Assembly: GCF_003628535.1 (NCBI RefSeq)
Contig: NZ_RBCI01000011.1
Location: 62,001-126,000 of the forward strand
Source of the DNA: Flavisolibacter nicotianae
GTDB taxonomy: Bacteria > Bacteroidota > Bacteroidia > Chitinophagales > Chitinophagaceae
DNA length: 64,000 nt
Reading direction: 5' to 3'
The position numbers and the translations under genes were made by a program. Within the stretch, counting starts at the first letter, position 1. Every line of letters begins with the position of its first letter. Under the pieces are notes generated by a model. The model was not told the origin of the DNA and did no database searches. It saw only the letters and a program-made list of their open reading frames with translations. Below, piece after piece: positions 9,349-30,349 of the stretch.

Positions 9349-9360
9349 GGTTCTTTGACA
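9349..9360 (+). promoter_or_regulatory. boxA-like element before cassette c1
   Basis: GGTTCTTTGACA matches the bacterial boxA antitermination consensus (TGYTCTTTRAMA) at all but the first position. It ends 2 bp before the cassette homology (CCTTCGGG). Its TGA is in frame with the cassette. The function is inference. Confidence 0.5.
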
Positions 9361-9370
9361 TTCCTTCGGG

Positions 9371-10612
9371 ATGAAGCTGCCGGGCCGCTCGGGTGCGCTG
9401 AGTGCCAGCGGGTTGTGGCAAGATGGGGGCAGTTCCAATGCTCTGCCAGCCAACCCGGTTTACGACAGCCGCACGGGCAATGAGCCCCTGGAGTACAAGG
9501 CCACTGAGACCATCAGCTTTGTGGAGGGCTTTGAAAGCGGGGTGAACGATGCCTTTGAGGCCTACATCACAACGGATAATGGAAGCGGCAGTGGAAATGG
9601 CGGCAGTGCAGCAGGCTTGTATGCTGATGGCGGGTACCGCTATGGCTTCAACGGCAAAGAGAAAGATAATGAGATAAAGGGTGAGGGGAATAGCTTAGAT
9701 TTCGGAGCAAGAATTTACGATCCCAGGCTTGGACGTTGGTTCAGTGATGATCCTAAATCTTCAAAATACCCAAGCTACAGCCCATACATATATTCCGCAA
9801 ATAGTCCGATTACTTTTATTGACCAAGATGGTGAAGATTGGATTGTATCTACTTCAACGGATAAGAAAACTGGCGTAACAACAATCAGTATAACAATCAA
9901 TGCTAAAATTGTGAATAATTCGTCCAAACCTATTGATATGAAAAAGTTAATCAAAAATGTTGAGGCGAATGTTGAAAGGTTATACTCTGGATCAGATCCT
10001 TCCGAGAAGTTGGTCTGGAAAACAAATCTGAATTTGCAGGAGTTTAAACAAGACAAAAACAAGCAGTCTAATCTTAGCAAAACAGATCACTTTTTAGAAG
10101 TTTTAGATGGTGACCATTTCAATAGTAAAACCACAGGGGGTTTCTCAAAGCAAGGTGGACTGTACATCGGTTTAAATGCAGATTATTTTGATAATAAAGG
10201 CACAATAGGGCGAATAAATGCGGGCAACGGCAAAATCGCTTACAATACCTCAATAATAGCTCATGAACTCGGCCATACAGGAGGATTACTCCATCCATGG
10301 GAAATTGAGGATAATCCTAATCTCAATACCGTGAACGGAAAAAAATTGGAAATCCCGGCACAAATAGCTGAAGATAGCAGAAATGACGACTTATATTATA
10401 CGTTTATGGGCTATTCAAGTAATCCGCCTGCTGGAGTGATATTAGACCCTAATATTCCAGCGCGTAATCCAAATAATGCAATGGCAAGTCAAATAAAAGA
10501 TATTAAACGAAATGCAGATAAAGGAAATCTAAATGGTAACGATACATCTACCCCAAGCGGTAAAGTTATACAGAAACGAACTCAAAAAAGTTTTGCAAAT
10601 ACACATGAATAG
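9371..10612 (+). CDS. Orphan Rhs cassette c1 with metzincin-type protease tip
   Basis: The first about 130 residues (from MKLPGRSGALSASGLWQ) copy the Rhs core. The ATG is simply the Met of PFGM and was chosen because an in-frame TGA lies just upstream; there is no obvious ribosome site, so the cassette may be silent. The tip after 'DQDGEDW' carries HELGHTGGLLH (residues 298-308), an exact HExxHxxGxxH zinc motif, followed by a candidate Met-turn 'FMGYS'. This is the signature of metzincin metalloproteases. The core end is slightly divergent (RWFSDDP). The stop codon overlaps the next gene, a lipoprotein and likely immunity protein, which suggests the target is in the periplasm or envelope. The protease motif is seen directly; use as a toxin is inferred from context. 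Confidence 0.85.
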   Translation: MKLPGRSGALSASGLWQDGGSSNALPANPVYDSRTGNEPLEYKATETISFVEGFESGVNDAFEAYITTDNGSGSGNGGSAAGLYADGGYRYGFNGKEKDNEIKGEGNSLDFGARIYDPRLGRWFSDDPKSSKYPSYSPYIYSANSPITFIDQDGEDWIVSTSTDKKTGVTTISITINAKIVNNSSKPIDMKKLIKNVEANVERLYSGSDPSEKLVWKTNLNLQEFKQDKNKQSNLSKTDHFLEVLDGDHFNSKTTGGFSKQGGLYIGLNADYFDNKGTIGRINAGNGKIAYNTSIIAHELGHTGGLLHPWEIEDNPNLNTVNGKKLEIPAQIAEDSRNDDLYYTFMGYSSNPPAGVILDPNIPARNPNNAMASQIKDIKRNADKGNLNGNDTSTPSGKVIQKRTQKSFANTHE

Positions 10613-11321
10613 CTACGTGATATTTTGGTGGGCTGCATGTTTTAGCCTCATTTTATCAAGTGTTAACTGTAAACTTAACAACGAGGCAATCATTCAAATT
10701 GACAATGCAGTTTTCGCTTTACCGAAGGGATGGAGTTATAAACAGCCTTCATCCAACAATTTTGTAATATTTAATGACACCAACAGGATAATAGTCAATA
10801 TAACCAATGACACTTCCTTTACGGACACACACCTTAAAAGTCCTTTAGAATATATTGAAACAGAAGATCCAAACCTTTTAACCCGCTTTGCATTTAATGA
10901 GCCAGGCGTTATATATACTTCTAAAGAAAACGTCGAAAAAATCAAAAGATCGAACGGCCTTGAAAGCAAAGTTCGAGAAAACCCTAAACCTGTTTTGGAG
11001 AGAGTAGTGAAAATTAATGACAGCTCATTAAGAAAGGAGGGCGTGGACTATTTATGCAGATTTAGAGTTAACGGCGGAGAAAAATGGCTACCTGTAAGCT
11101 TGCCAAAATACTTAAATAATTTCCTATTCGAAGTGAGTAAAAACGAAAATACATACAAAAAGCTTTACTATCCTATAAATAAAAATAGAGGGAAGATTGG
11201 TTTTCTGATCAAAGATTTCAACCATCATATTGTGCTGTCCGCTCATAGTAATTTGATAAATAGTGACACCCAATATTTTGTTGATATGCTAACGATATTT
11301 AATTCAATGAGAATTAAGTGA
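10605..11321 (+). CDS. Putative lipoprotein immunity protein for c1
   Basis: I chose the ATG at 10605, which overlaps the c1 stop by 8 bp. The product, about 238 residues, then starts with a lipoprotein signal (hydrophobic run ending SSVNC); a longer in-frame start at 10533 would bury it. The rest resembles small secreted Bacteroidota proteins of unknown function with the pattern 'ALPKGWSYKQP'. An exported inhibitor fits a secreted metalloprotease toxin. Translational coupling to c1 is likely. No family is recognised. Confidence 0.7.
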   Translation: MNSYVIFWWAACFSLILSSVNCKLNNEAIIQIDNAVFALPKGWSYKQPSSNNFVIFNDTNRIIVNITNDTSFTDTHLKSPLEYIETEDPNLLTRFAFNEPGVIYTSKENVEKIKRSNGLESKVRENPKPVLERVVKINDSSLRKEGVDYLCRFRVNGGEKWLPVSLPKYLNNFLFEVSKNENTYKKLYYPINKNRGKIGFLIKDFNHHIVLSAHSNLINSDTQYFVDMLTIFNSMRIK

Positions 11322-11460
11322 TAAATACGGGCGACCCCTAGCCTTTATTGAATTATACAAATGCATGCGTCTGGCTTTTGGTAGTGTTCGCTTAGATTAT
11401 CAAGGACTTCTGTTTTAGTCTCTTTGGCTCTAGAGAGTTATTCTTATTTTCCACCATTCT

Positions 11461-11472
11461 AGTTCTTTGACA
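11461..11472 (+). promoter_or_regulatory. boxA-like element before cassette c2
   Basis: AGTTCTTTGACA lies 5 bp before the cassette homology, with its TGA in frame with the cassette. About 140 bp of otherwise featureless DNA separates it from the c1 immunity gene. Confidence 0.5.
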
Positions 11473-11485: not shown

Positions 11486-12499
11486 ATGAAGCTGCCGGGC
11501 CGCTCGGGTGCGCTGAGTGCCAGCGGGTTGTGGCAAGACGCGGGCAGTTCCAATGCCCTTCCCGCTAACCCGGTTTACAACAGCCGCACAGGCAACGAGC
11601 CCCTGGAATACAGGGCCACCGAGACCATCAGCTTTATGGAGGGCTTTGAAAGCGGGGTGAACGATGCCTTTGAGGCCTATATTACGACGGATAATGGAAG
11701 CGGCAGTGGATCAGGTGGCAGTGGTGCCGGCCTGTATGCTGATGGTGGGTATCGCTATGGCTTCAACGGAAAAGAGCAAGATCCAGAGACCTACGGCGAT
11801 GCAAACATTTATGATTATGGCTTTAGGATTTATAATCCTCGCATCGGGCGGTTCTTGAGCGTCGACCCGTTAACAAAAAAATACCCTGAACTGACGCCTT
11901 ATCAATTTGCTTCAAACAGGCCAATTGACGGTGTTGATTTAGATGGTCTGGAGTATGCAACTTTCCATATTTACGTTGACAAAAATCAAAAAGTAACGAA
12001 GGTTACAGTCACTACCGATTATGAGTTAAAGAATAACGGTACCGAAGGACCCGGAGTAAAATATGTTATTTTTAAAGTGGATGAAGGGTATAGGCCTGAT
12101 GAAGTAAGATGGTCCAAGAATATTTATGGCATTTATCAAGGTCCAGATAACCCCCGGATGCCCAAGGTAGGTAAGAACTATAATGTTTTATATGATGATT
12201 ATAGGCTTGCTCCAATAGATGAAGCCGACGCTAATGCAAAGCAGCACGATCAGGATTATGATGCCGTCAAGGTAAGAGGCTTGGGTGGTGTGATGGATTC
12301 TAAGAGTACACCTGCAAATGAAGCTTATATAAAAAGAGCAGGCATAATCGAAGAAAAACAAAAGAAAGGTGAAAAGGACAACATTACTGGAAAGCCGGTG
12401 ACAAAGGAAGCGGCGAAAGCTGCAAAAAAAGGTAGCGAGTTTTTTCAAGCGGCTGAAAGTCTGAAAAAAATGAAGGGCATGCGGATACCGACACAATAA
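11486..12499 (+). CDS. Orphan Rhs cassette c2 with phospholipase A2-like tip
   Basis: The core-like segment runs to 'RIGRFLSVDPL'. The tip after 'DGLEYATF' contains 'APIDEADANAKQHDQDYD' with the His-Asp pair at residues 254-255. The pattern of an acidic residue, Ala, Lys and HDxDYD followed by a Gly-rich stretch and an 'AN' helix resembles the PLA2-like domain found at the ends of other Rhs proteins; family assignment is from memory. It would attack membrane phospholipids. The C-terminus is Lys-rich. A lipoprotein gene follows 10 bp downstream, consistent with a periplasm-acting toxin. Like the other cassettes it lacks an evident promoter or strong ribosome site. Confidence 0.75.
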   Translation: MKLPGRSGALSASGLWQDAGSSNALPANPVYNSRTGNEPLEYRATETISFMEGFESGVNDAFEAYITTDNGSGSGSGGSGAGLYADGGYRYGFNGKEQDPETYGDANIYDYGFRIYNPRIGRFLSVDPLTKKYPELTPYQFASNRPIDGVDLDGLEYATFHIYVDKNQKVTKVTVTTDYELKNNGTEGPGVKYVIFKVDEGYRPDEVRWSKNIYGIYQGPDNPRMPKVGKNYNVLYDDYRLAPIDEADANAKQHDQDYDAVKVRGLGGVMDSKSTPANEAYIKRAGIIEEKQKKGEKDNITGKPVTKEAAKAAKKGSEFFQAAESLKKMKGMRIPTQ

Positions 12500-12509: not shown

Positions 12510-12971
12510 ATGAGATACAGTTTGGTTTTTATTATAATACTGCTCGGCTGTGGCATTGATGGTGGCACCCATGGTTCAATAAAGGGATACCGCTATCATG
12601 TCTCAAAACATCGCTTACAAGAGGCTGTCAATGCAGTAATTAACACGAGCCAAAATGTTGTCCGGGATACAAGTAAAGATTACTACAACGATGGAGAGAA
12701 CTACCTCACAATAACAATTAAAAAACAAGACGTTGAGAATATTTATACGTTCCGGTATTATGGCAAAAAAGAAGATTGGGATACATCTCACAGTTCAGAG
12801 GTATTCATTGCCTATGCACATGACAAAGAAGGAAATGGCGGCAGCACAGGGGATGGAGGTTTCACACGGCTAAGTGAAAAATCAAAACAAAAATTGATTG
12901 GGATTTTCGAAACTGAATTTATTGATAAAGTTGACGGTCACGTAGGGCAAACTCATGTAACCACCGATTAA
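12510..12971 (+). CDS. Putative lipoprotein immunity protein for c2
   Basis: This 153-residue protein begins with a short lipoprotein signal (IIILLGCG; lipobox LLGC), so the mature protein should be anchored in the envelope. It is rich in charged and aromatic residues and is not recognised. It lies 10 bp after the PLA2-like cassette, and an exported inhibitor is expected for a membrane-attacking enzyme. Confidence 0.7.
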   Translation: MRYSLVFIIILLGCGIDGGTHGSIKGYRYHVSKHRLQEAVNAVINTSQNVVRDTSKDYYNDGENYLTITIKKQDVENIYTFRYYGKKEDWDTSHSSEVFIAYAHDKEGNGGSTGDGGFTRLSEKSKQKLIGIFETEFIDKVDGHVGQTHVTTD

Positions 12972-13065: not shown

Positions 13066-13077
13066 GGTTCTTTGACA
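13066..13077 (+). promoter_or_regulatory. boxA-like element before cassette c3
   Basis: GGTTCTTTGACA is identical to the c1 element. It lies 5 bp before the cassette homology, with its TGA in frame. Confidence 0.5.
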
Positions 13078-13090: not shown

Positions 13091-14311
13091 ATGAAGCTGC
13101 CGGGCCGCTCGGGCGCACTGAGTGCCAGCGGGTTGTGGCAAGATGGGGGCAGTTCAACTGCCCTTCCGGCCAACCCGGTTTACAACAGCCGCAGTGGCAA
13201 CCAGCCCCTGGAGTACAGGGCTACCGAAAGCATCAGCTTTGTGGAGGGCTTTGAAAGCGGGGTGAACGACGCCTTCGAGGCCTATATCACGACTGATAAT
13301 GGCAGCGGTAGCGGTGGAAATGGCGGCAGTGCAGCAGGCTTGTATGCAGATGGTGGGTACCGCTATGGCTTTAACGGAAAGGAGAATGACAATGAAGTCA
13401 AGGGTGAGGGCAACCAGCAGGACTACGGCATGCGCATTTATGACCCGAGGCTGGGACGGTTCCTGAGCGTGGACCCTGTTGTCTCTGAGTTTCCATGGAT
13501 ATCTCCTTATGCTTTTGCCGAAAACGATGTTATTAGAAATTTTGATTTAGATGGACTAGAAAAAGCAACTCCTGCCGTTTATGACATGGCTGTACAGTTG
13601 AGAGAAATGGTGGGCAGAAGGGTTACGAATTCTACAGTTTCACTCTCCAAGACAACAGATAAAGAAGTTATCAAGACTTTGAAGTTGTCAATTGAACTTG
13701 ATAAAAGAACATACGCTGCCTTAGTACTTTTTACATACAAAAACCATCCTACAGAAACTGAAAGGTTAGCCTACTATGCTGAAAAAGCAAAGCCAATTGT
13801 TAAAGAAGGCCTAGACTTAACTCCTGCCGGAGATGTAAAGGTTGTCTTAACAGGTAAAAATTTCAGAGGGGAAGAGAGCAGTAGATTAGGGGCTGTAGGC
13901 TGGTTGGCATTAGACGTTTTTGGCGCTGAGATTTTAAGTGGCCTAGGAAAAGCAGGACGAGCGGCAAGAGTGCTTGAGGGAGCTGGAAAAGAAGCTCTTG
14001 AAAACGTCATTAAGAAGGTTAATAATATTTCTACTGCTTTGGACGAACTCCATATAAGAGCCGCTGTAAATGACATATTTGGCAAGCCGGTCATAATCAA
14101 TGGGAAAGCTTATGATCATCTAACCGAAGTAAAGAATGCTTTGGGCGGCTTAAAAAATCAAATAAAAGAACTGAACAAGTTAATTAATAGCAACAAAGTA
14201 AGTAGGGATGTAGTTGAAACAGCCACTGAATTGAGGAATACACTTTCTAAGCAGAAAGATGAAATAAATGCCGTTCTAGATAGAGCAACAAAAGCCGCAA
14301 AAAACAAATAA
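13091..14311 (+). CDS. Orphan Rhs cassette c3 with Ntox28-like tip
   Basis: The core segment runs to 'YDPRLGRFLSVDP'. A hydrophobic, Gly-rich pre-toxin segment follows ('RLGAVGWLALDVFGAEILSG', about residues 270-290) and resembles pre-toxin regions of other polymorphic toxins. The last about 90 residues contain 'GKAYDHLTEVKNALGGL' (Asp-His at 342-343) and a long helical 'LINSNKVSRDVVETATELRN' segment. This matches the pattern of polymorphic toxin type 28 (Ntox28), a predicted RNase; family recognition is from memory. The downstream gene, 4 bp away, has no signal peptide, as expected for a cytoplasmic nuclease inhibitor. Confidence 0.8.
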   Translation: MKLPGRSGALSASGLWQDGGSSTALPANPVYNSRSGNQPLEYRATESISFVEGFESGVNDAFEAYITTDNGSGSGGNGGSAAGLYADGGYRYGFNGKENDNEVKGEGNQQDYGMRIYDPRLGRFLSVDPVVSEFPWISPYAFAENDVIRNFDLDGLEKATPAVYDMAVQLREMVGRRVTNSTVSLSKTTDKEVIKTLKLSIELDKRTYAALVLFTYKNHPTETERLAYYAEKAKPIVKEGLDLTPAGDVKVVLTGKNFRGEESSRLGAVGWLALDVFGAEILSGLGKAGRAARVLEGAGKEALENVIKKVNNISTALDELHIRAAVNDIFGKPVIINGKAYDHLTEVKNALGGLKNQIKELNKLINSNKVSRDVVETATELRNTLSKQKDEINAVLDRATKAAKNK

Positions 14312-14315
14312 CAAA

Positions 14316-14741
14316 ATGAACACCCAAGAAGCGAATAACCGATCCTTAGAAGAATTAGAAAATGACTTTTGGAATGTCCCGTCAGAGTTTCCAACAAAAC
14401 TAGTTGAAAGTGTATTTCTACTCCGGAGGAAACCGATATACAATTTAGATGCTAATGAAATACGTATCCTTTTGTCACAAAATGTTGGGCTAAAATATAT
14501 AGTTCCTTTAGCAATTAGTTTATTAAATCGGAATGTTTATGAAGAAGCCCTATACTACCCAGGAGATTTACTACTAACTCTTTTGAAAGTCGAAGAAAGC
14601 TTTTGGTTGAAAAACATTCAACAAAAGAATGAGCTAATAAAATTGATTAATAAAAAGAGACCAAATATTATCAAGAGTGATATATTGGATGAGGATATAA
14701 AAAACGAGATATTAGACAAATTTCAGAAGCTTGTAGTTTAA
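14316..14741 (+). CDS. Putative cytoplasmic immunity protein for c3
   Basis: This 141-residue, mostly helical, acidic protein has no signal peptide. 'LEELENDFWNVPSEFPTKLV' near the start and a following helical region resemble small immunity proteins that accompany contact-dependent toxins, but no family name is certain. It starts 4 bp after the Ntox28-like cassette. Confidence 0.7.
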   Translation: MNTQEANNRSLEELENDFWNVPSEFPTKLVESVFLLRRKPIYNLDANEIRILLSQNVGLKYIVPLAISLLNRNVYEEALYYPGDLLLTLLKVEESFWLKNIQQKNELIKLINKKRPNIIKSDILDEDIKNEILDKFQKLVV

Positions 14742-14822: not shown

Positions 14823-14834
14823 CGCTCTTTGACA
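14823..14834 (+). promoter_or_regulatory. boxA-like element before cassette c4
   Basis: CGCTCTTTGACA is close to the enterobacterial boxA form. It lies 8 bp before the cassette homology, with its TGA in frame with the cassette. Confidence 0.5.
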
Positions 14835-14850: not shown

Positions 14851-16149
14851 ATGAAGCTGCCGGGCCGCTCCGGCGCATTGAGTGCCAGCGGGTTGTGGCA
14901 AGAGGCGGGCAGTATAAACCCTCTTCCGGCCAACCCGGTTTACGACAGCCGCACCGGCAACGAGCCCCTGGAATACAAGGCCACCGAGACCATCAGCTTT
15001 GTGGAGGGCTTTGCCAGCGGGGAAGTTGATGCCTTCGAGGCCTATATCACACAGGATAATGGAAGTGGTAGCGGTGGCAATGGCGGCAGTGGTGCCGGCT
15101 TGTATGCGGAAGGCGAGTATCGCTACGGCTTTAATGGCAAGGAGAATGACGATGAGGTCAAGGGAGTTGAAGGTAGTCAGCAGGACTACGGCATGCGCAT
15201 TTATGACCCACGGCTGGGCAGGTTCCTGAGCGTGGACCCATTGACTTTTAAATATCCAGAATTAACTCCTTATCAATTTGGTTCGAATAGGCCAATTGAT
15301 GGTATAGATGAAGACGGTCTTGAGTGGGCACCAACTAAAGACAAGCAAGGTAAGGTTACTGATTATTCTTGGGTAGGTTATAACTCGGACGGTTCAGCAA
15401 AGGCTGGATCGGTCTCCAGTGCCATTTTATTTAAAAGCGATTTTGACTACTATTTTTCAAGCAACTCCAAAGAAAAATCTGGGGCAATTGATATCATTTC
15501 GCAAAAACGTTCAGAGGGCCGTACAGCGCCCAGTGAGATTTATGATGCAACGAAAGATTATAATTATACGATCAACTTTACTACTTCCGGGAGTGGCCGT
15601 TATGGTTCAGGGTATAAAATAACTGCTAATGTATGGGCACCGAATAGCGGCTCAAGTCCTGATACTTGGATTGATGCGACAAATTCCAGAATAGATCCAA
15701 GTGGTTACGGCGGAGAAAGGGCTTTGAACAAGGCCAGTTCAACATTTGGCCTTAAGCAGCAATCGCCTGCACTCGTTCCTGTATATCCAGAAGCCTTGCT
15801 AATGCCTTTACCTAAGCTGGGGATGTTTGGGAAAGCGGCAGAGTCTCTTGAAGGCTTTCTTGCAGCTGAAACTGGCGGCATGAAGCAGTGGTTGAGATTT
15901 GGAAAGAGCTATTCAAAGGTCGGAGAAACGCCTACGGTTGGTTTTCGATGGGGTGCTGGTGGAGACTTTAGTTTAAAAATTGGTAACCCGTACTTAAGAT
16001 CAGCTAATGAATGGTTGAGAACTAGAAGGTTATTCCCTGGTCTGAAAACATGGTGGAATGAGGCAGGCCATTTTCATCTAATGAAGTTGCCAAGCAGGAC
16101 CTTCTATCAAAACATGGCAAGGGAAAACATTATAAATTTACTGAAGTAA
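14851..16149 (+). CDS. Orphan Rhs cassette c4 with unassigned tip
   Basis: The core copy ends in 'KENDDEVKGVEGSQQDYGMR', identical here to the expressed Rhs gene and unlike most cassettes. The tip (after 'DEDGLEW', about residue 155 on) has a Tyr/Ser/Gly-rich middle and a C-terminal domain of about 110 residues with 'GMKQWLRFGKSYSK', 'WLRTRRLFPGLKTWWNEAGH' and a final 'AGHFHLMKL'. I do not recognise it. The immunity candidate starts in the stop codon (TAATG) and has no signal peptide, which suggests a cytoplasmic target such as nucleic acid or translation; that is inference. Confidence 0.75.
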   Translation: MKLPGRSGALSASGLWQEAGSINPLPANPVYDSRTGNEPLEYKATETISFVEGFASGEVDAFEAYITQDNGSGSGGNGGSGAGLYAEGEYRYGFNGKENDDEVKGVEGSQQDYGMRIYDPRLGRFLSVDPLTFKYPELTPYQFGSNRPIDGIDEDGLEWAPTKDKQGKVTDYSWVGYNSDGSAKAGSVSSAILFKSDFDYYFSSNSKEKSGAIDIISQKRSEGRTAPSEIYDATKDYNYTINFTTSGSGRYGSGYKITANVWAPNSGSSPDTWIDATNSRIDPSGYGGERALNKASSTFGLKQQSPALVPVYPEALLMPLPKLGMFGKAAESLEGFLAAETGGMKQWLRFGKSYSKVGETPTVGFRWGAGGDFSLKIGNPYLRSANEWLRTRRLFPGLKTWWNEAGHFHLMKLPSRTFYQNMARENIINLLK

Positions 16150-16652
16150 TGAACATTGTAGATCATGAAACTAAGATGTTCCTTAAAGGGAACAATTCTA
16201 TAAATGTGCTTAAGGTGATTGACTTCTTGGAAAATCACAAAGCATTACAAGCAAATGCTACGATAGAAGAACTGGCTACTGCAGACTTTTTCAAAATATA
16301 CTTTAGCTGCAGTTTACATAGAAGGTGCTCGTTCTCGATTTGGATAGAAAGAAGTGATGATCAAATAGTGTTTTTTAATGTAGGTGAAAAGGAGATAGAA
16401 GCAACTGTTTTTCATTACATCGAAATATCCTCGCTGAAGGATGTTGAGCAGGTAATTTCAGGAATCAAAACTTTTTTGGAAAGCGTTGTAGAAAAGCAGT
16501 CTCAATATTGTAACGGACGTTTAAAGAAAGTCTCATATAAGTTGATCCATGCGAATCATAAAGGCCTAATCTATACAAAGCTTGTAGAGAGCCATCTTTT
16601 TTGCTTCAGAAAGTCACTCTCCTACGACAAATATGAGGCTTGGACGAAATAA
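16149..16652 (+). CDS. Putative cytoplasmic immunity protein for c4
   Basis: This 167-residue protein overlaps the c4 stop by one base (TAATG), indicating translational coupling. It has no signal peptide and looks like a mixed alpha/beta domain ('FSIWIERSDDQIVFFNVGEK'). No family is recognised. The role is assigned by position. Confidence 0.65.
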   Translation: MNIVDHETKMFLKGNNSINVLKVIDFLENHKALQANATIEELATADFFKIYFSCSLHRRCSFSIWIERSDDQIVFFNVGEKEIEATVFHYIEISSLKDVEQVISGIKTFLESVVEKQSQYCNGRLKKVSYKLIHANHKGLIYTKLVESHLFCFRKSLSYDKYEAWTK

Positions 16653-16732: not shown

Positions 16733-16744
16733 AGCTCTTTGAAA
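16733..16744 (+). promoter_or_regulatory. boxA-like element before cassette c5
   Basis: AGCTCTTTGAAA lies 8 bp before the cassette homology, with its TGA in frame. The final AAA resembles the Gram-positive boxA form. Confidence 0.5.
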
Positions 16745-16760: not shown

Positions 16761-18068
16761 ATGAAGCTGCCGGGCCGCTCGGGCGCACTGAGTGCTAGCG
16801 GGTTGTGGCAAGAGGCAGGCAGTTCAACTGCTCTGCCAGCCAACCCGGTCTATGACAGCCGAACGGGCAACCAGCCCCTGGAGTACAAGGCCACCGAGAG
16901 CATCAGCTTTGTGGAGGGCTTTGAAAGTGGGGTGAACGATGCCTTTGAGGCCTATATCACGACGGATAATGGAAGCGGCAGTGGATCAGGTGGCAGTGGT
17001 GCCAGCTTGTATGCTGATGGCGGGTACCGGTATGGGTTTAACGGCAAGGAACAAGATTCGGAAATTTCCGGTGATGGAAATCAGTACGATTACGGGTTTA
17101 GGATTTACAATCCCCGGTTAGGAAGATTCTTGAGTGTAGATCCCTTGACAAAAGGTTACCCGATGTTAACACCTTATCAATATGCCAGCAACAGGCCTGT
17201 AAATGGAATAGACTTGGATGGATTGGAGTTTTTGTCCTTCCAAAAATCTATGTACCGAATGCAGTTTAGCGTTTCAAGTACAAATAATGTGTCAACGACA
17301 AGCACAATCCTTCAAACAGTTTATGAGAATATTCCTGCGGCTTTACAAGATGCAAAGATGCAAAGCTTCAAGTTTGTGAATGGAGGTCCTGTTACAACTA
17401 AGGGGCGAGACTATAACTCAACACTTGATGGGGCTATCGTTTATGACGCTAATAAATACTACGGAAGGCAAACTCCTGGCTTTAACGGCCTTCCCCCAGG
17501 GTCTGCACCAGAGCCTACAGATGCCACTAAACCGGTAGGTAGTTACTATGGTGATGATCCTGCGTGGGGCTCTTCTGGTCCGGCACAGATAAGTGCAGGG
17601 GCTTCGGGAGCTAAAGAAGGAGTTGAAATTGCACAGAATGTTTCTAACATTAGCATTTGGGATGCTCTATATGATGAGAGTAATTTACGCAGGGGATTTT
17701 ATAACGCAACCAACACGATTGATGCTTACATGGCAATAAATCCAAAGACGGGAAAGAATTATTTTGGAGACGAGCTAAAAGGCGCTGATCAAAGAGTTAT
17801 GCTGGTTAATTTTTTAAGTGATGGTTATCTGCCGACTGCCGAAACCGACCAGTTCACTGGTTCGGAATATAGCAAGATCCGGAGAGAAGCTTTTGGAAGG
17901 CAGTTAACGGTAGCTTGGCATGGACTACAGGTTATGCAGGCTCAAGGAATTAAAATTCAGGATAAGACAAAGAGTGCCGTAAATGATGTGTTGAAAAAAT
18001 ACAAAGCAGACGGCGGAGGTAATGAATATGATAAGATTAGTCAATATACTTCAACCCAGAAACAATGA
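16761..18068 (+). CDS. Orphan Rhs cassette c5 with unassigned tip
   Basis: The core copy carries the 'QYDYGFRIYNPRLGRFLSVD' allele. The tip (after 'DLDGLEF') is about 290 residues with 'GQTPGFNGLPPGSAPEPTD'-like low-complexity and a C-terminal helical domain with 'NPKTGKNYFGDELKGADQRV' and 'AFGRQLTVAWHGLQVMQAQG'. No enzyme motif is recognised. Its stop overlaps the next ATG by 4 bp (ATGA). Because that partner is a predicted lipoprotein, the tip probably acts outside the cytoplasm. Confidence 0.75.
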   Translation: MKLPGRSGALSASGLWQEAGSSTALPANPVYDSRTGNQPLEYKATESISFVEGFESGVNDAFEAYITTDNGSGSGSGGSGASLYADGGYRYGFNGKEQDSEISGDGNQYDYGFRIYNPRLGRFLSVDPLTKGYPMLTPYQYASNRPVNGIDLDGLEFLSFQKSMYRMQFSVSSTNNVSTTSTILQTVYENIPAALQDAKMQSFKFVNGGPVTTKGRDYNSTLDGAIVYDANKYYGRQTPGFNGLPPGSAPEPTDATKPVGSYYGDDPAWGSSGPAQISAGASGAKEGVEIAQNVSNISIWDALYDESNLRRGFYNATNTIDAYMAINPKTGKNYFGDELKGADQRVMLVNFLSDGYLPTAETDQFTGSEYSKIRREAFGRQLTVAWHGLQVMQAQGIKIQDKTKSAVNDVLKKYKADGGGNEYDKISQYTSTQKQ

Positions 18069-20546: not shown

Positions 20547-20709
20547 ATTGGCGATGAGGCTGTCCAGAAAGTCGAAGACGAGTTCCTTTTCTTTTTTGGT
20601 GGAGACGTCAAATTCTTTTCAGTGCAGTTATTTAAGCACATTTACATCGTTTTCGATGCGGGGGTTGCACCCAGTGTCGATCTTGCAATAGAGCGCTGCT
20701 TTTTTGAGA
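20520..20709 (-). pseudogene. Decayed reading frame, possibly XRE-regulator C-terminus
   Basis: The minus strand reads through two stops as a protein-like sequence including 'KIDTGCNPRIENDV', 'KEFDVSTKKEKELVFDFLDS' and 'LIANKKNKNLLG', then stops. The end resembles the C-terminus of small XRE-type regulators in Bacteroidota; this is uncertain. It lies between the c6 immunity gene and c7 and may mark an insertion or acquisition boundary. Confidence 0.3.
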
Positions 20710-22071
20710 CAGTACCTTGACATTTTTTATTCCTTTGGCAACGTGCTGGCGACGATCTCTGATAAGAAGATCGGTGTATCTTCACCACAAGACAGTTCTT
20801 TGATTGAGCACTACAGGGCGGAAGTAACCACAGCCCAGGACTATTACCCCTTCGGGATGAAGCTGCCGGGCCGCTCGGGTGCCCTGAGTGCCAGCGGGTT
20901 GTGGCAAGATGCAGGCAGTGGAAACCCTCTTCCGGCTAACCCGGTTTACAACAGCCGCACTGGCAACGAGCCCCTGGAATACAAGGCCACCGAGACCATC
21001 AGCTTTGTGGAGGGCTTTGAAAGCGGGGTGAACGATGCCTTTGAGGCCTACATCACAACGGATAATGGAAACGGCAGTGGAAATGGCGGCAGTGCAGCCG
21101 GCTTGTATGCTGAAGGTGGGTACCGCTATGGCTTCAACGGCAAGGAGCAAGACCCGGAAATTTCCGGCGATGGAAATCAGTATGACTACGGGTTCAGGAT
21201 TTATAATCCCCGGCTAGGGCGCTTCTTGAGTACTGATCCTATTGCAGCGAAATACCCTGAGCTTACACCGTTTCAGTTTGCAAGTAATAGTCCCGTTAGC
21301 GGCGTTGATCAAGATGGTTTAGAGTATGTGTTTTACAAGATGTTTCGTAATGATGCTACTTCTGAGTTTAAAATTGTCAAGACCGGAGAAGTGGATTATG
21401 GAAATTGGGCATTAAACTTAGTCCATAAAACAACGGGTTGGACACCAGACTATTTTAAAACTCCTGTGCTTGAATATCTTGATGGAAAGCATTACTTGTT
21501 TTCTTCAGAAAAAGAAGTAATGAGTTTAAAGCCTGGTGATGCTAGGTTAAGCCCAGACAAGACCTATACTTTAGAGGGGATCGGAGCTTTATACAACGCT
21601 ACAGATGCATTAGGCGGTGTATTAGTTGGAACTTTAATTGAAAAGGCGCCAAGCGAAAAAGTCTCTCCAAACAAAGGAAGAGGAACAGCATTAGAGAAAC
21701 AAAATGGAACGGCTGCGCAACAATATGAAAATACAATACCGGGATCCGCGTCCGACGTAGCTACCCAAAAGAAAATAGTTCCGACTCTTAAGTACGATAA
21801 TCCTAACCCTAACGGGAAAAACTTTATTAAGTTTGATGGATTTGAACCTGAAACAAATACTTTTATAGACAGGAAGCTTTCTTTCACCAGTTATCCAAAG
21901 TCCTTAGATCAGTTAAGAAGAGCCTCTGAAGCGTTGAGACAAAATCCTGGCTTTAACATTCGGTATGAGGTTCCTGATGCCAAACAGCTTAGGACGGCGG
22001 TAAAATTATTTAGAGACTTAAGAATAACCAATGTTGGTGTAAAAGTTGTGCCCAGAAAGCCTACGCCTTAA
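20704..22071 (+). CDS. Orphan Rhs cassette c7 with REase-fold nuclease-like tip
   Basis: This cassette differs from the others: Rhs homology begins about 125 bp earlier (at about 20733, encoding 'GNVLATISDKKIG'), and there is no clear boxA-like element. It may start at the ATG at 20704. The core is followed by a tip ending in 'NFIKFDGFEP' (D378) and 'FIDRKL' (D389-K391), then 'RRASEALRQNPGFNIRYEVP'. The D...DxK arrangement and following helix match restriction-endonuclease-fold toxins. The partner gene 9 bp downstream has no signal peptide, as expected for a DNA- or RNA-cutting toxin. Confidence 0.8.
   Translation: MRQYLDIFYSFGNVLATISDKKIGVSSPQDSSLIEHYRAEVTTAQDYYPFGMKLPGRSGALSASGLWQDAGSGNPLPANPVYNSRTGNEPLEYKATETISFVEGFESGVNDAFEAYITTDNGNGSGNGGSAAGLYAEGGYRYGFNGKEQDPEISGDGNQYDYGFRIYNPRLGRFLSTDPIAAKYPELTPFQFASNSPVSGVDQDGLEYVFYKMFRNDATSEFKIVKTGEVDYGNWALNLVHKTTGWTPDYFKTPVLEYLDGKHYLFSSEKEVMSLKPGDARLSPDKTYTLEGIGALYNATDALGGVLVGTLIEKAPSEKVSPNKGRGTALEKQNGTAAQQYENTIPGSASDVATQKKIVPTLKYDNPNPNGKNFIKFDGFEPETNTFIDRKLSFTSYPKSLDQLRRASEALRQNPGFNIRYEVPDAKQLRTAVKLFRDLRITNVGVKVVPRKPTP
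20733..21240 (+). repeat. Extended Rhs-core homology block of c7
   Basis: This copy matches the expressed gene from about position 7489 onward, so it carries roughly 125 bp more upstream homology than the other modules. The match across 20745-20860 appears nearly exact to 7500-7615. The longer block would make c7 the best recombination partner of the expressed gene. Confidence 0.85.
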
Positions 22072-25352: not shown

Positions 25353-26131
25353 TGGTACTTGTTTGAAGTGGTGGTTCAGTTGTTTGTCTTGTTTTGGTTT
25401 TAGGTCAGATATCTTTATTGTTACTATTTCAATGCACGAGGGCCTCTTCCTGCCAGAAACAGGTCACTGGCAGAGGGGTGAACATATATTGCCTCTTGCT
25501 TCTGAGCTTGGATATGGCTGAGATGCAGCAGTTGATTTCAAGGAATAAAAAATGGCAAATAGAGGGACCATTTTGATGAACATTTTGGTATTGCTTAATA
25601 AAATTAGTTTGGTCAAAATAATATACATATTCGAAAAATGCTTTGGCTTTTGAAATGCTGGGTTAGTAGCGCAGCCCATATTGTCAGTGTTTATAGGATG
25701 TTATGGATAGCTGACGAGCTACTTTGACTGTGCTGACATCAGAGTATAATTTTGCCCATAGATATGCCTCACACTTGTCGTTTCTTTGTTGATCGTTGTT
25801 AGCATATTACCAAGATTATCACTCCAAATCCGTTTTTGCCATCGAATTTCTGCAAGCCTCTGTACACCTTTTGTATCAAAGAACTTTTGCTAAAGAATTG
25901 CCTTACAACTGCACAAGATAAAAGTATTTGTCATTCATGGGTAGCGTATTTCTACGATTGATTTCACTAATTCCGGCTTACCATAGTATCTCCGACGCCT
26001 TGAAACTCGACATTGGCGGGTTGTAGTTTAAAGGAGCTTTCAAGCTGCTAATCAAAACCCTATTACATCTGCTGCTTGCGAAAAAGGATACTTACAACTT
26101 AAGCAATGCACTGAGTATAGCAAAATAAAAA
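25353..26131. other. Gene-poor stretch
   Basis: This 780-bp AT-rich region separates the 844-aa gene from a decayed regulator. I see no credible gene, RNA or repeat. Its right part leads into the XRE relic at 26132, so some of it may be eroded coding sequence. Confidence 0.5.
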
Positions 26132-26344: not shown

Positions 26345-26382
26345 AACACAAAAGCCGCTGCATGTGCAGCGGCTTTTGTGTT
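26345..26382. terminator. Bidirectional terminator hairpin
   Basis: A long inverted repeat (AACACAAAAGCCGCTGCA and its complement with a 2-nt loop) has A-rich and T-rich flanks. It overlaps the stop codon of the c8 immunity gene and can end transcription from both sides. Confidence 0.85.
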
Positions 26383-27028
26383 AGTAGTTTACACGGTCTT
26401 TATAGTCTGGCGGCAGCCACTCTCTCACCTCCTGCCACTCTTCATCTGGTTGCGTAAGATTTCGCATAAACAGATTTGACAGTTCCGGTTTAAATCCAAT
26501 GATGTCAAGTGGCTTTTCAAAATCATTTGCCGAATACTTTCCCCATGCTGCGGTCTGCCCAAAAACAAAATATTCTTTGTGTGGCATTTCAAAAAGGACG
26601 GAAGAGATGAAGTTGCCGCTCATTAGCTCTTCCCATGTAACTATAGCTGGATACTTCATTCGTAAAGGCGGTTCGTCGGAAGATTTACCAAAGGTGTTTT
26701 CAATAACTACAAAACTCCTCTCACCAAGTTCTAAAAAACATGCCTGCAAACTTTCAAAATCAGCCTTCTCAAAAAGCACCCCTCCTCTCAAGGCTATTAA
26801 ACGATAGCTGTCGCCAAAAACCATTTCAGGTAAAGCCCTATCTTGATTAATAAAAATCTCATCTTGTAGTGGCTTCCAAAAAGTTTCATACTCAGGCTCC
26901 GTCAGGCCGTATTTTTCCAAATAGCCTCTTCCAACTGCTTTTAATCCCCACTCGTTCTCCTGTATGCTTGAGTAAAGCAGGTAATAGTTTGAAGAATACT
27001 TTTCAATTAGCGTTTCAAAATCATTCAT
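26381..27028 (-). CDS. Putative cytoplasmic immunity protein for c8
   Basis: This 215-residue protein has no signal peptide. Its start overlaps the end of c8 by 8 bp, so translation is probably coupled. 'SFVVIENTFGKSSDEPPLRM' and 'EYFVFGQTAAWGKYSANDFE' suggest an alpha/beta fold; the family resembles small uncharacterised proteins next to polymorphic toxins. It implies that the c8 tip acts in the cytoplasm. Confidence 0.7.
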   Translation of the reverse strand: MNDFETLIEKYSSNYYLLYSSIQENEWGLKAVGRGYLEKYGLTEPEYETFWKPLQDEIFINQDRALPEMVFGDSYRLIALRGGVLFEKADFESLQACFLELGERSFVVIENTFGKSSDEPPLRMKYPAIVTWEELMSGNFISSVLFEMPHKEYFVFGQTAAWGKYSANDFEKPLDIIGFKPELSNLFMRNLTQPDEEWQEVREWLPPDYKDRVNY

Positions 27029-28364
27029 TCTCTACTCTTATTTTATACGTCTTTCCAGAATTGTTCACGTCAATGGTCGGCACTCCGGTTCTCGTTGAGT
27101 TATGCATTCCCATTCTAAGCTCGCCAGACTGGAAAAATATTCCTCCTTTGCTGTCAGCTTGTAGCTCTGCACCGTATTGCTTCGCCAAGCCCTGCAACAC
27201 ATCATACGCATCTCCTTTGATAGTACCCTGCTTAACTCCCCCTTTGAGCCTTGTTAATGTACCGGCATCTGAAATCAAGTCATCCACCTTTTTATACTTC
27301 GCTGCATTTGCATTTTCAAGAGAAAAGCCACTGGTTCGGTTTAATGGACCAATATTGTTCTCGCCCAACGTCATGAAGCCGGTAAACAACTCCATCATTT
27401 GAAGGTTTGTAAACCACACGAAATGATAATTCTGGGTTGTCCTGTCGTGTCGCTCTTGAATGAGTGCCGCTTTTGTATTTGGGTCTTTTGCCTGGTTAAT
27501 CTTGTTCAGGTAATTATTGTACGCAGCGTCTCCAAAAAACCTTGACCTCGCATAGTCGTTTGCAATCTCAAACGCCTTGTCCATAGCACTTTGCTGGATG
27601 CCTGTTACATCACCGCCTGCGTAAAGCGAATAGGATGTGTACTTGCTTAACGCATTGGTTCCAAAGTATCCGTACATCGCATCTTTAACCCTGGTTGTAA
27701 ACTCCGGATCAATGTTGTAGTTGGGATTGAACTGCTTTTGAACAATGTCATTTATCTCAACTACGATTTGGTTCCAACTTTGCTGTTGCAGTAGAACCAA
27801 TCCTCTGGGATTTGTTGAAGCCATCGTTTTGGCAGTCTTTGAAGCTATTGGGTCGGCGGTTATCACAAATACGTCTATTACGTTGGTCTCTTGCTCCTCC
27901 AACCCATCTAAGTCAACGGCAATAATCGGTTTGTTTCCTGCAAATTGATAAGGGGTATACCAAGGATAAGATTTAAACAGAGGGTCAACGGATAAGAACC
28001 GTCCCAATCTGGGGTTGTAAATCCTGAACCCGTAATCGTACTGATTTCCATCGCCGGAGATTTCCAGATCATTTTCCTTTCCGTTAAACCCATAGCGGTA
28101 CCCACCATCAGCATACACGCCGGCCCCACTGCCGTCATTTCCACTGCCGCTTCCATTATCCGTCGTGATATAGGCCTCAAAGGCATCGTTCACCCCGCTT
28201 TCAAAGCCTTCCACAAAGCTGATGGTCTCGGTGGCCTTGTACTCCAGGGGCTCATTGCCGGTGCGGCTGTTGTAAACCGGGTTGGCCGGAAGGGCAGTTG
28301 AACTGCCCCCATCTTGCCACAACCCGCTGGCACTCAGGGCACCCGAGCGGCCCGGCAGCTTCAT
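27021..28364 (-). CDS. Inverted orphan Rhs cassette c8 with unassigned tip
   Basis: The cassette is on the opposite strand to the expressed Rhs gene. The core copy carries the 'QYDYGFRIYNPRLGRFLSVD' allele. The tip of about 290 residues has a helical middle ('QERHDRTTQNYHFVWFTNLQ') and a C-terminal about 80-residue domain with 'LTRLKGGVKQGTIKGDAYDV', 'GIFFQSGELRMGMHNSTRTG' and 'TIDVNNSGKTYKIRVE'. The short basic beta-rich end looks like a small nuclease toxin but I cannot name it. The inverted orientation means that exchange with the expressed gene would invert about 20 kb. Confidence 0.75.
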   Translation of the reverse strand: MKLPGRSGALSASGLWQDGGSSTALPANPVYNSRTGNEPLEYKATETISFVEGFESGVNDAFEAYITTDNGSGSGNDGSGAGVYADGGYRYGFNGKENDLEISGDGNQYDYGFRIYNPRLGRFLSVDPLFKSYPWYTPYQFAGNKPIIAVDLDGLEEQETNVIDVFVITADPIASKTAKTMASTNPRGLVLLQQQSWNQIVVEINDIVQKQFNPNYNIDPEFTTRVKDAMYGYFGTNALSKYTSYSLYAGGDVTGIQQSAMDKAFEIANDYARSRFFGDAAYNNYLNKINQAKDPNTKAALIQERHDRTTQNYHFVWFTNLQMMELFTGFMTLGENNIGPLNRTSGFSLENANAAKYKKVDDLISDAGTLTRLKGGVKQGTIKGDAYDVLQGLAKQYGAELQADSKGGIFFQSGELRMGMHNSTRTGVPTIDVNNSGKTYKIRVENE

Positions 28365-28374: not shown

Positions 28375-28386
28375 TATCAAAGAGCT
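28375..28386 (-). promoter_or_regulatory. boxA-like element before cassette c8
   Basis: On the minus strand this reads AGCTCTTTGATA. It lies 2 bp before the cassette homology, with its TGA in frame with the cassette, as in c1-c5. Confidence 0.5.
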
Positions 28387-28495
28387 GAATAATAACACAA
28401 CCAATGAGTCCGAAGCCAATGCATAAAAACAGCGGCTAGACTCATTGAGGAAGGAAAAATTGAAATAAACCTTAAATAGTATGTGGCTTTTTGTT

Positions 28496-29041
28496 TTATA
28501 AGTTTGTAATTATAGCTCTACACTCATTAGGGAAATCTGCACACTTATCGTTTAATACGTTGTATTTAATATCTGTTTCTAAAAAAATATATCGGCTAAT
28601 AACAAAACCTACTAATGAGCTGGATTTTTTGATGGTTTCATTTAAAGGAAACAAAAACCTCCTTCCATAAAGACTATAATCACTTAACCTCTTATTTATT
28701 TTTCTTCCGCTCTTACTTTTTGGATTATTTTCCATCACGTTATAGACTTTAAATTCCTGCTTTAGAGTATCAAGTATTCCTAATTTTGTAGAATAGTTTT
28801 TTTTACTCAATGCACTCATAACAGAGTCTATTTTTAAAGGCGTATCGGAAACAATCAAATATAAGTCTTCAAAAGACACATACCCCAAATCAATTAAACC
28901 AGAAGCATACACAGGATTGAAAGAAATTATGTAACTACCAGTTTTGCTTGCTGGTGTTTGAGCAATAGCAAAGCAATTGATTTGAAGAAGCCCTGCTATC
29001 ATTGCTACCTTGATAAATGCTATTATTTTTTCAATCTTCAT
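28496..29041 (-). CDS. Putative exported immunity protein for c9
   Basis: This 181-residue protein starts 3 bp after the c9 stop. The N-terminus is a signal sequence ('VAMIAGLLQINCFAIAQ'), either a lipoprotein or a Sec signal. The mature part is Lys/Ser-rich with 'YISFEDLYLIVSD'-like beta regions, not recognised. An exported inhibitor fits the metalloprotease-like tip of c9. Confidence 0.65.
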   Translation of the reverse strand: MKIEKIIAFIKVAMIAGLLQINCFAIAQTPASKTGSYIISFNPVYASGLIDLGYVSFEDLYLIVSDTPLKIDSVMSALSKKNYSTKLGILDTLKQEFKVYNVMENNPKSKSGRKINKRLSDYSLYGRRFLFPLNETIKKSSSLVGFVISRYIFLETDIKYNVLNDKCADFPNECRAIITNL

Positions 29042-29044
29042 TAC

Positions 29045-30286
29045 TTATTGTTTAGGTGGTTCTGGTCTTTTCGGAACAGATTGCAATATGTTAGTAACAT
29101 TGGTTTGGCTAAGTGGTTTGATACCATCAAATGAAACGGTTGTCTTTTCATCTGTTGATGTCCTTATTTGTCCAGGGAACCTAAATTGAGCTGTACCGTA
29201 ATTTAAAATACCGCCACCTGCAGCAGCATGTCCTGCGGCTGTATTTTCAGGAGAACTAATTTTTCTATCAGGATGTAATCTTAAAAAGAAGTGTGTGGCT
29301 TCATGACCTGTCGTATGCGGTCTTTGAGTTCGTTCGTCATAGAATTGGCTATTAACCGTTACAACAAAGCCCCTGTCTAAGTTACCTTCTTCTTTAGTAC
29401 CCTCGTCTCCTGGCTCTGACGGCATCACTTCAGGATTTATAAGATCTCTTCGTAAAATAAATCCTCTGTATTGATAGGCTCCGCCACCTTCGGGAGTTAC
29501 TTTGAATGCTTGATTATTTTTAAGCTCAGTAACTTTGTTCTCAATTCCAGTTTCCGAACCATCAACTTCAAAGGTTTTAACGTTGAACCTCCATATAACA
29601 TCATTTCCTGCATCATCTTTAAACTTATTGTCTGGGAATTGAGAATTCAAATCTCCTATTACTTGGCCTTTAACTTTCACATCATCAGATGGCTTCTTTG
29701 CATAAAAATGAGGTGAATTTTTATCTCTTGATATTGCCACATAAACATCTGCTTCAACTACTCTTTTGATAACAGCCTTTCCATCTTTATCAGTTTGTGT
29801 TTCTAAGTATTGCACTCCTTCTAAACCGTCTACATCTATAGCTTGTATCGGTGAATTACTTGCAAACTGATATGGCGTAAGCATAGGGTATTTTTTCATT
29901 AATGGGTCGGCAGAAAGGAACCGTCCTATTCTCGGGTCATATATGCGCATGCCATAGTCCTGCTGGTTACCCTCACCCTTGACCTCATCGTCATTCTCCT
30001 TGCCATTAAACTCATAGCGGTACCCGCCATCAGCATACAAGCCAGCTCCACTGCCGCCTGATCCGCTACCACTGCCATCACCCGTCGTGATGTAGGCCTC
30101 AAAGGCATCGTCCACGCCGCTTTCAAAGCCCTCCACAAAGCTGATGGTCTCAGTGGCTTTGTATTCCAGGGGCTCATTGCCCGTGCGGCTGTCGTAAACC
30201 GGGTTGGCTGGCAGAGCATTGGAACTGCCCCCGTCTTGCCACAAGCCGCTGGCTGTCAGGGCACCCGAGCGGCCCGGCAGCTTCAT
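29045..30286 (-). CDS. Inverted orphan Rhs cassette c9 with HExxH zinc-protease tip
   Basis: The core copy ends 'QQDYGMRIYDPRIGRFLSAD' and is inverted relative to the expressed gene. The tip contains 'GHEATHFFLRLHPD': H328, E329, H332 form HExxH, and H338 sits at the metzincin third-ligand spacing, although the usual Gly is absent. 'NTAAGHAAAGGGILNYG' follows. The shape suggests a zinc-dependent peptidase different from the c1 metzincin. The downstream partner carries a signal peptide, so the target is probably periplasmic. Confidence 0.8.
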   Translation of the reverse strand: MKLPGRSGALTASGLWQDGGSSNALPANPVYDSRTGNEPLEYKATETISFVEGFESGVDDAFEAYITTGDGSGSGSGGSGAGLYADGGYRYEFNGKENDDEVKGEGNQQDYGMRIYDPRIGRFLSADPLMKKYPMLTPYQFASNSPIQAIDVDGLEGVQYLETQTDKDGKAVIKRVVEADVYVAISRDKNSPHFYAKKPSDDVKVKGQVIGDLNSQFPDNKFKDDAGNDVIWRFNVKTFEVDGSETGIENKVTELKNNQAFKVTPEGGGAYQYRGFILRRDLINPEVMPSEPGDEGTKEEGNLDRGFVVTVNSQFYDERTQRPHTTGHEATHFFLRLHPDRKISSPENTAAGHAAAGGGILNYGTAQFRFPGQIRTSTDEKTTVSFDGIKPLSQTNVTNILQSVPKRPEPPKQ

Positions 30287-30337
30287 CCCGAAGGGAGACG
30301 AAAATCTCGACTATAACTATACAGATCGCCAGGATCT

Positions 30338-30349
30338 TGTCAAAGAACA
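30338..30349 (-). promoter_or_regulatory. boxA-like element before cassette c9
   Basis: On the minus strand this reads TGTTCTTTGACA, a full match to the TGYTCTTTRAMA consensus. Here it is 43 bp from the cassette homology and not in the common reading-frame register. Confidence 0.55.

What the first reader, a model, noticed from the sequence alone, without database searches (positions are those of the whole stretch)
9349..30349. boxA-like element at a fixed in-frame position before seven cassettes
A 12-bp motif (GGTTCTTTGACA, AGTTCTTTGACA, CGCTCTTTGACA, AGCTCTTTGAAA, AGCTCTTTGATA, TGTTCTTTGACA) precedes c1-c5, c8 and c9. In six of seven it ends 2, 5 or 8 bp before the cassette homology, always in register so that its TGA is in frame with the cassette. 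It resembles rRNA boxA, which recruits NusB/S10 for antitermination. Intergenic DNA between modules is otherwise unrelated, so the motif and its phase are conserved for a reason: transcription through the array, a translational stop ahead of the cassette, or a recombination-site mark. I know of no report of boxA at Rhs tips.
Basis: partly seen in the sequence, partly recalled or inferred. Interest (0 to 1): 0.85.

Follow-up and report, generated by a model that had tools for sequence, protein, structure and literature searches.

The report
boxA signals before displaced toxin cassettes
A short sequence that matches the ribosomal-RNA boxA signal sits at the start of most truncated ("orphan") Rhs toxin-immunity cassettes in this window and recurs at part of such cassettes in two bacterial families, which suggests that it helps transcription run through a truncated toxin gene to its protective immunity gene.

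Summary
The motif is real and not chance. GYTCTTTGAHA occurs 9 times in the window (0.49 expected): before seven of nine orphan Rhs tips, before a probable decayed core fragment, and once inside an unrelated long frame. Genome-wide, 12 of 41 hits lie outside frames of 168 aa or more: 8 in this array, 2 in the rRNA operon (16S leader, 16S-23S spacer), 2 elsewhere. So it equals the genome's own rRNA boxA. With the window left out, GTTCTTTGA was the top-ranked 9-mer at orphan-tip breakpoints of related genomes and again in a second, named set. A profile trained only on rRNA boxAs fits breakpoints in Chitinophagaceae (19/90; antisense 0/90) and in a Flavobacteriaceae-like family (21/55; antisense 0/55), not elsewhere (1/56; antisense 2/56). 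A promoter-like box is enriched 11-30 bp upstream (29 against 3.5 in shuffles), but not in this window. The in-frame TGA is local: outside the window 4 of 24 sites are in frame. Best reading: a boxA antitermination element that carries RNA polymerase across a truncated toxin segment to its immunity gene. Nus-factor binding and antitermination are inferred. Library searches found no report.

The parts
9349..9360 (+). boxA-like element before c1 (GGTTCTTTGACA)
11461..11472 (+). boxA-like element before c2 (AGTTCTTTGACA)
13066..13077 (+). boxA-like element before c3 (GGTTCTTTGACA)
14823..14834 (+). boxA-like element before c4 (CGCTCTTTGACA)
16733..16744 (+). boxA-like element before c5 (AGCTCTTTGAAA)
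28375..28386 (-). boxA-like element before c8 (AGCTCTTTGATA)
30338..30349 (-). boxA-like element before c9 (TGTTCTTTGACA), 45 bp before TTCGGG
25874..25884 (-). boxA-like element (GTTCTTTGATA) before an eroded Rhs core fragment
25722..25823 (-). eroded Rhs core fragment (SDNLGNMLTTINKE...), a probable tenth, decayed orphan
   Evidence: 8/18 identical to SNHLGNVLATISDKKIGV of the full-length core, E 0.001 in a single comparison
20712..20722 (+). two-mismatch boxA look-alike (GTACCTTGACA) before the c7 breakpoint; may be chance
9..8963 (+). full-length rhs gene (open frame runs on upstream of the window)
9371..10612 (+). orphan tip c1
11486..12499 (+). orphan tip c2
13091..14311 (+). orphan tip c3 (Pfam Ntox28 at its end)
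14851..16149 (+). orphan tip c4
16761..18068 (+). orphan tip c5
18577..19782 (+). orphan tip c6 (no motif)
20704..22071 (+). orphan tip c7 with a longer core remnant (no exact motif at its breakpoint)
27021..28364 (-). orphan tip c8
29045..30286 (-). orphan tip c9
8971..9297 (+). ORF after the full-length rhs; candidate immunity gene by position only
10533..11321 (+). ORF after c1; candidate immunity gene by position only
   Evidence: no Pfam match
12510..12971 (+). ORF after c2; candidate immunity gene by position only
14316..14741 (+). ORF after c3; candidate immunity gene by position only
16149..16652 (+). ORF after c4; candidate immunity gene by position only
   Evidence: no Pfam match
18065..18526 (+). 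ORF after c5; candidate immunity gene by position only
28496..29041 (-). ORF after c9; candidate immunity gene by position only
26381..27028 (-). ORF after c8; candidate immunity gene by position only
   Evidence: no Pfam match

Best explanation
The motif is a boxA element, the RNA signal bound by NusB-S10 in rRNA leaders, placed at the breakpoint where an Rhs gene was cut by displacement of its tip. Transcripts that enter an orphan module, by read-through from the module before it or from a promoter just upstream of boxA, would otherwise run over about 1 kb of toxin RNA that is poorly translated because the tip has lost its gene start, and would be lost to Rho-dependent termination (polarity). 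boxA loads the antitermination complex, so the polymerase reaches the immunity gene at the end of the module and stored immunities stay expressed. Shown by sequence: identity with the genome's rRNA boxA, sense orientation, position at the breakpoint, recurrence in many genera at different breakpoints, fit to a profile trained on rRNA only, and in other genomes a promoter-like box upstream. Inferred: NusB-S10 binding, resistance to Rho, poor translation of the orphan tip, that the downstream ORFs are immunity genes, and the benefit.
For: Same 11-mer in the 16S leader and 16S-23S spacer of this genome. 8 of 12 hits outside long frames lie in this array. Top 9-mer at breakpoints of other genomes, window excluded: 9 of 28 genomes, one of them (L120) a coding look-alike; next unrelated 9-mer 3. 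Repeated in a second set: 6 of 29 organisms, then GCTCTTTGA 3. 113 breakpoints outside the window: 21 sites in the 100 bp before the boundary, antisense 0, reversed pattern 0. rRNA-trained profile, score 8: 19/90 and 21/55 against antisense 0/90 and 0/55 and shifted windows 10/510 and 0/317. In the Flavobacteriaceae-like family four breakpoints of one array carry that family's rRNA form GTTCATTGA, seen at 0 of 90 Chitinophagaceae breakpoints. Promoter-like box 11-30 bp upstream, 29 against 3.5. A NusB gene is present. Precedent: a CRISPR boxA, GTTCTTTAAAA, raised array RNA about 10-fold and relieved polarity (PMC7862264, passages).
Against: Only 19/90 and 21/55 breakpoints match at score 8, and c6 and c7 lack an exact copy. 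No signal in other families (1/56, antisense 2/56). With a profile from the Flavobacteriaceae-like rRNA alone only 7/55 of that family's breakpoints match, and their commonest forms are GTTCTTTTA (9) and GTTCTTTAA (7), not the rRNA form; my pre-written pattern GTTC-N7-TATTG hit only 3 of 47. Bases after GTTCTTTGA vary (GAGT, GAAT), unlike rRNA. Five of 11 readable Chitinophagaceae leaders have GATCTTTGA, not GTTCTTTGA. The cassettes' shared coding part is under purifying selection (pN/pS 0.21), so these frames were translated at some time. No promoter-like box by the pattern at the 8 window sites. Nothing on RNA or protein was measured.
Confidence: 0.6

Rival explanations
1. The element belongs to a DNA promoter or its first transcribed bases and has nothing to do with Nus factors; orphan modules simply carry their own promoter.
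For: A Bacteroidota-like -7 box is enriched 11-30 bp upstream (29 against 3.5), and the motif holds TTTG as that box does.
Against: The motif lacks the TA two bases before TTTG, keeps GTTC instead, and equals rRNA boxA, which in this genome lies well downstream of the leader's promoter-like boxes. At the window sites no promoter-like box is found by the pattern.
Confidence: 0.15
2. Promoter plus boxA serve to express the truncated toxin itself, as a separate small protein, rather than only the immunity gene.
For: The tips are long open frames and their shared part shows pN/pS 0.21; an ATG follows the breakpoint at PFGM in the window.
Against: In nine flavobacterial modules in four genomes an in-frame TAG lies between the boxA-like string and PFG (several are related copies). 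Many breakpoints have no start codon near in frame. Untranslated RNA, not mRNA, is what boxA is known to protect (established knowledge).
Confidence: 0.12
3. The motif marks a recombination or insertion site at which tips are swapped or displaced.
For: It sits exactly at the breakpoint, and a phage-integrase-family gene lies next to c9.
Against: Breakpoints fall at different core positions; the full-length gene has no such site directly before PFGM; the motif is strictly sense; it equals rRNA boxA; flanks share nothing longer.
Confidence: 0.06
4. Relic of core codons: TCTTTGA arises from coding words such as F-F-E-L or S-S-L-I and was left by deletions.
For: Coding look-alikes exist: L102, L103, L120, L219 at 9265, and AGTTCTTTGATT in the window's full-length gene and c7, 56 bp before the ATG.
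Against: DNA before the junction elements is not core, as a simple deletion would require; downstream-shifted windows, which lie in the core and tip, match in 7/258 and 0/163 against 19/90 and 21/55.
Confidence: 0.04

Closest known systems
boxA of rRNA operons (NusB-S10/NusA/NusG/SuhB antitermination)
   Same: Same sequence as this genome's leader and spacer boxA; sense strand; precedes a long stretch to be transcribed. boxA is described as necessary and sufficient for building the complex (PMC10250234, passages).
   Different: Not in an rRNA operon; lies 4-10 bp (once 45 bp) before the cassette; less conserved after GTTCTTTGA; function not shown.
boxA upstream of CRISPR arrays (Stringer et al., recalled and as cited in PMC7862264)
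   Same: boxA ahead of an array; form GTTCTTTAAAA is also seen at flavobacterial breakpoints.
   Different: There one boxA serves a whole array of short repeats; here each of several toxin-immunity modules has its own.
boxA of the lambda nut site (passages of PMC10250234)
   Same: Use of boxA outside rRNA to overcome termination.
   Different: Works with boxB and protein N; no such partner was looked for here.
Orphan Rhs/effector-immunity modules made by displacement (model described in PMC5361080, passages)
   Same: Truncated C-terminal tips followed by small ORFs behind a full-length rhs gene.
   Different: The passages seen do not mention boxA; terms 'promoter' and 'transcri' do not occur in that paper's main text.

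Membership tests
boxA antitermination element | Sequence matches the boxA of the organism's own rRNA operon | tested here: met
   Leader GTTCTTTGAAA and spacer GTTCTTTGACATATTGG; rRNA-trained profile
boxA antitermination element | On the transcribed strand of the region it serves | tested here: met
   8 of 8 window sites are sense to the following core; antisense 0 at 113 breakpoints in the 100 bp before the boundary
boxA antitermination element | Lies in the 5' part of a transcript, after a promoter | tested here: inconclusive
   Promoter-like box enriched upstream in other genomes, none by the pattern in the window; no RNA data
boxA antitermination element | Binds NusB-S10 | not testable with these tools
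   A NusB gene is in the genome
boxA antitermination element | Lets polymerase resist Rho or polarity | not testable with these tools
   Needs a reporter assay
Bacteroidota -7 promoter box TAnnTTTG (consensus recalled) | TA two bases before TTTG in the motif itself | tested here: not met
   The 8 window sites read G(T/C)TCTTTGA, without that TA
Orphan Rhs tip (displaced C-terminal cassette) | Core C-terminal part homologous to a full-length rhs gene, cut at its 5' side, followed by a different tip | tested here: met
Orphan Rhs tip (displaced C-terminal cassette) | Followed by a cognate immunity gene | tested here: inconclusive
   Small ORF follows each tip; the three checked, after c1, c4 and c8, have no Pfam match

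The most novel reading that the evidence does not exclude
Displaced Rhs toxin-immunity modules of Chitinophagaceae and Flavobacteriaceae share a dedicated head: a boxA at the breakpoint, in many genomes with a promoter-like box just before it. It keeps archived immunity genes transcribed across a silenced toxin segment, making these arrays a further natural user of boxA antitermination beside rRNA operons, lambdoid phages and CRISPR arrays, gained repeatedly at independent breakpoints.
Probability: 0.45. Interest if true: 0.85.

Novelty: new variant of a known kind. Interest (0 to 1): 0.72.

Why it matters
It would explain how stored, truncated toxin modules can keep their immunity genes expressed without expressing the toxin, an open question for orphan Rhs arrays. 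It would extend boxA antitermination to a further class of gene arrays and give a simple signal for finding displaced toxin-immunity modules. It also makes a direct prediction: changing about 10 bp should lower RNA of the immunity gene about 1 kb downstream.

Tried and rejected
Phase of TGA as a general feature: rejected. The pattern GTTC-N7-TATTG, written down before the flavobacterial set was read: only 3 of 47, so it does not describe that family's element well. Other families of the phylum: 42 truncations in 13 genomes without enrichment (this set still held three genomes of the Flavobacteriaceae-like family, counted with that family); 'other' is 1/56. Many boundaries there may be ill placed, because the core profile comes from Chitinophagaceae-type proteins, so a real element could be missed. 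Rfam on the two other own-genome hits outside long frames and on the 25874 region: no match; reading their surroundings gave no clear account. Sigma-70-type promoter and terminator scans of 8900-28800: no excess over shuffles (40 against 37.3; 16 against 20.7).

Rows and choices: one search took 20 array regions and searches took 40 entries (one a 10-base filler, one a refetch) by hand from the capped list, favouring short frames; one search took 20 from the capped list; searches took 38. Breakpoints within 100 bp of a locus edge, with a profile start below 60, or with 60 aa or more open upstream were dropped (86 breakpoints, 74 kept, 9 of these from the window; 54 and 48 after dropping 12 already seen). 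The coding look-alikes L120 (248) and L219 (9265) were left inside the automatic counts. One leader hit of L149 and one of L321 were removed from the training set.
Full report
WHAT IS THERE. The window holds one full-length rhs gene (frame 9-8963; the open frame runs to 3034 aa beyond the window) and nine orphan C-terminal tips, c1-c7 on + and c8-c9 on -. Their shared 5' part is 87-94% identical to a composite query, with ten matches in the genome, all in this array (a shorter core query gave eleven). Directly before seven of the nine tips lies GYTCTTTGAHA. An eighth copy (25874-25884, -) lies before an eroded core fragment (the similarity is weak). The window has 9 hits against 0.49 expected, and none of 100 shuffles reaches 9. 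Between the previous gene and the motif the modules share only 8-12 bp matches, while the motif is kept at 11 of 11 positions of GYTCTTTGAHA. The shared coding part differs at 36% of synonymous sites, summed over pairs of the nine tips and the full-length gene, so these modules are old and the motif has been kept.

IT IS THE GENOME'S OWN boxA. The 16S leader has GTTCTTTGAAA 136 bp before 16S, and the 16S-23S spacer has GTTCTTTGACATATTGG. Of 41 genome-wide hits (reversed pattern 14), 29 lie in stop-to-stop frames of at least 168 aa. The other 12 are 8 in the array, 2 in the rRNA operon and 2 elsewhere. Of 20 family genomes searched, 10 had a 16S match. With the own genome, all 11 with a readable leader have G(T/A)TCTTTGAAA there: GTTC in 6 and GATC in 5.

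IT RECURS ELSEWHERE. I built a profile of the Rhs core from ten proteins, found core breakpoints in 59 loci of other genomes of the family plus the window, and asked which k-mers are commonest in the 80 bp before true truncations (to +5), leaving the window out (65 truncations, 28 genomes). GTTCTTTGA and AGTTCTTTG came first among 9-mers (9 genomes each; one, L120, is a coding look-alike); the next unrelated 9-mer had 3. One breakpoint, in a Flaviaesturariibacter MAG (L219, 7650), reads GTTCTTTGACATCTCCCTTCCTTCGGGATG, nearly that of c2. Other breakpoints lie at GNVLAT, DYYPFG or RYGFNG of the core, so the element is not tied to one piece of core. Over 113 breakpoints outside the window, 21 sense sites lie in the 100 bp before the boundary, 5 in the bin before that, 4, 4, 3 and 3 in the four bins after it, and 0 or 1 in every other bin from -1500 to +1500; antisense and reversed patterns have 0 in the 100 bp before the boundary.

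TEST WITH rRNA ONLY. A 12-column profile was trained on 17 + 23 rRNA boxAs. At score 8, Chitinophagaceae breakpoints match in 19 of 90 (antisense 0 of 90, shifted windows 10 of 510, shuffled 5 of 900) and those of a Flavobacteriaceae-like family in 21 of 55 (antisense 0 of 55, shifted 0 of 317, shuffled 5 of 550). Fisher tests give 1e-6 to 8e-20, but related breakpoints are not independent, so these values are too small. Other families: 1 of 56, antisense 2 of 56. A profile from the Flavobacteriaceae-like rRNA alone matches only 7 of 55 breakpoints of that family, and one from Chitinophagaceae rRNA alone 20 of 90 and 8 of 55.

LINEAGE FORMS. In the Flavobacteriaceae-like family the spacer boxA is GTTCATTGACATATTG in 11 of 11 genomes read, and 10 of 11 leaders have GTTCAT with TATTG behind it. 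Four breakpoints of the G655 array read ACGTTCATTGAAA, a form seen at 0 of 90 Chitinophagaceae breakpoints. But GTTCTTTTA (9) and GTTCTTTAA (7) are commoner in that family, so co-variation with rRNA is only partial. The pattern that I had written down beforehand, GTTC-N7-TATTG, hit 3 of 47. There GTTCTTT is the top 7-mer (10 of 20 genomes; next 8), while several AT-rich 6-mers rank beside GTTCTT. GTTCTTTAA is the form of a Legionella CRISPR boxA, GTTCTTTAAAA, that raised precursor RNA about 10-fold in synthetic arrays (PMC7862264, passages).

A PROMOTER-LIKE BOX. Over 59 boxA-like sites chosen by a loose pattern (22 Chitinophagaceae, 29 Flavobacteriaceae-like, 8 window), TAnnTT(T/A)G or TAnnTTTA starts 11-30 bp upstream 29 times, against 3.5 in mononucleotide shuffles; a 60-bp control stretch further upstream has 4. 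None of these is at a window site; c1 has only the near match TATATTGG. So some modules elsewhere probably start their own transcript at boxA, while those of the window may rely on read-through.

PHASE. In the window TGA is in frame in 6 of 7 sites; outside in 4 of 24. It is a local trait.

MECHANISM. boxA is described as necessary and sufficient for building the rRNA antitermination complex (PMC10250234, passages). rRNA and CRISPR RNA share one trait: RNA without ribosomes, which Rho could attack. A displaced tip has lost the start of its gene. In nine flavobacterial modules (four genomes, several of them related copies) an in-frame TAG lies just after the element; all nine have GTTC(A/T)T within 110 bp upstream, against 11 of 24 sites with an intact codon. 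The simplest account is that boxA carries the polymerase over the tip to the immunity gene. The strongest counter-evidence is the purifying selection on the shared coding part (pN/pS 0.21), which says that these frames were translated at some time. That may date from before displacement, or from return into the full-length gene by recombination. Neither translation nor transcription was measured.

LIMITS. Two same-genus genomes have no comparable array (two weaker matches in G004), so orthologous arrays could not be compared. Many draft arrays end at contig ends. Boundaries are those of a profile search and can be off by tens of bases. Regions were picked by hand from capped lists. Searches of the open-access library for boxA with Rhs, with 'polymorphic toxin', with NusB and 'immunity gene', and for orphan Rhs with Chitinophaga gave no paper; most subscription papers are not in that library. 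I saw only listings of the other papers.

Noticed in passing
window 30439-31509 (+): A phage-integrase-family (PF00589) recombinase gene lies divergent from c9.
   Followed up: no
window 13091-14311 (+): The c3 tip matches Pfam Ntox28 (Bacterial toxin 28) at its end; tips c1, c2, c4, c5 and c6 have no Pfam match; c7-c9 were not scanned.
   Followed up: no
window 20492-20532 (+): A 10-bp hairpin followed by a T run lies before c7, which lacks an exact boxA; its energy is not unusual against shuffles (z -0.30).
   Followed up: partly
L282, L283, L284, L286, L287, L302, L237: Nine orphan modules have an in-frame TAG in place of the first Y of DYYPFG (or its variant), just after a boxA-like string.
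   Followed up: partly
window 16149 and 18065: The ORFs after c4 and c5 overlap the tip's stop codon by a few bases, which suggests translational coupling in the ancestral arrangement.
   Followed up: no
window 22818-25352 (-): An 844-aa ORF lies inside the array beyond the eroded core fragment; its family was not checked.
   Followed up: no
L001 1-600: The 16S leader holds several TATCTTTG-like boxes in tandem, which look like rRNA promoters (read by eye).
   Followed up: no
L173, L185, L186, L304, L309, L312: A few flavobacterial breakpoints carry GTTC-N7-TATTG, the longer rRNA boxA outline (L185, L186, L304, L309, L312); L173 carries only GTTCTTA.
   Followed up: partly
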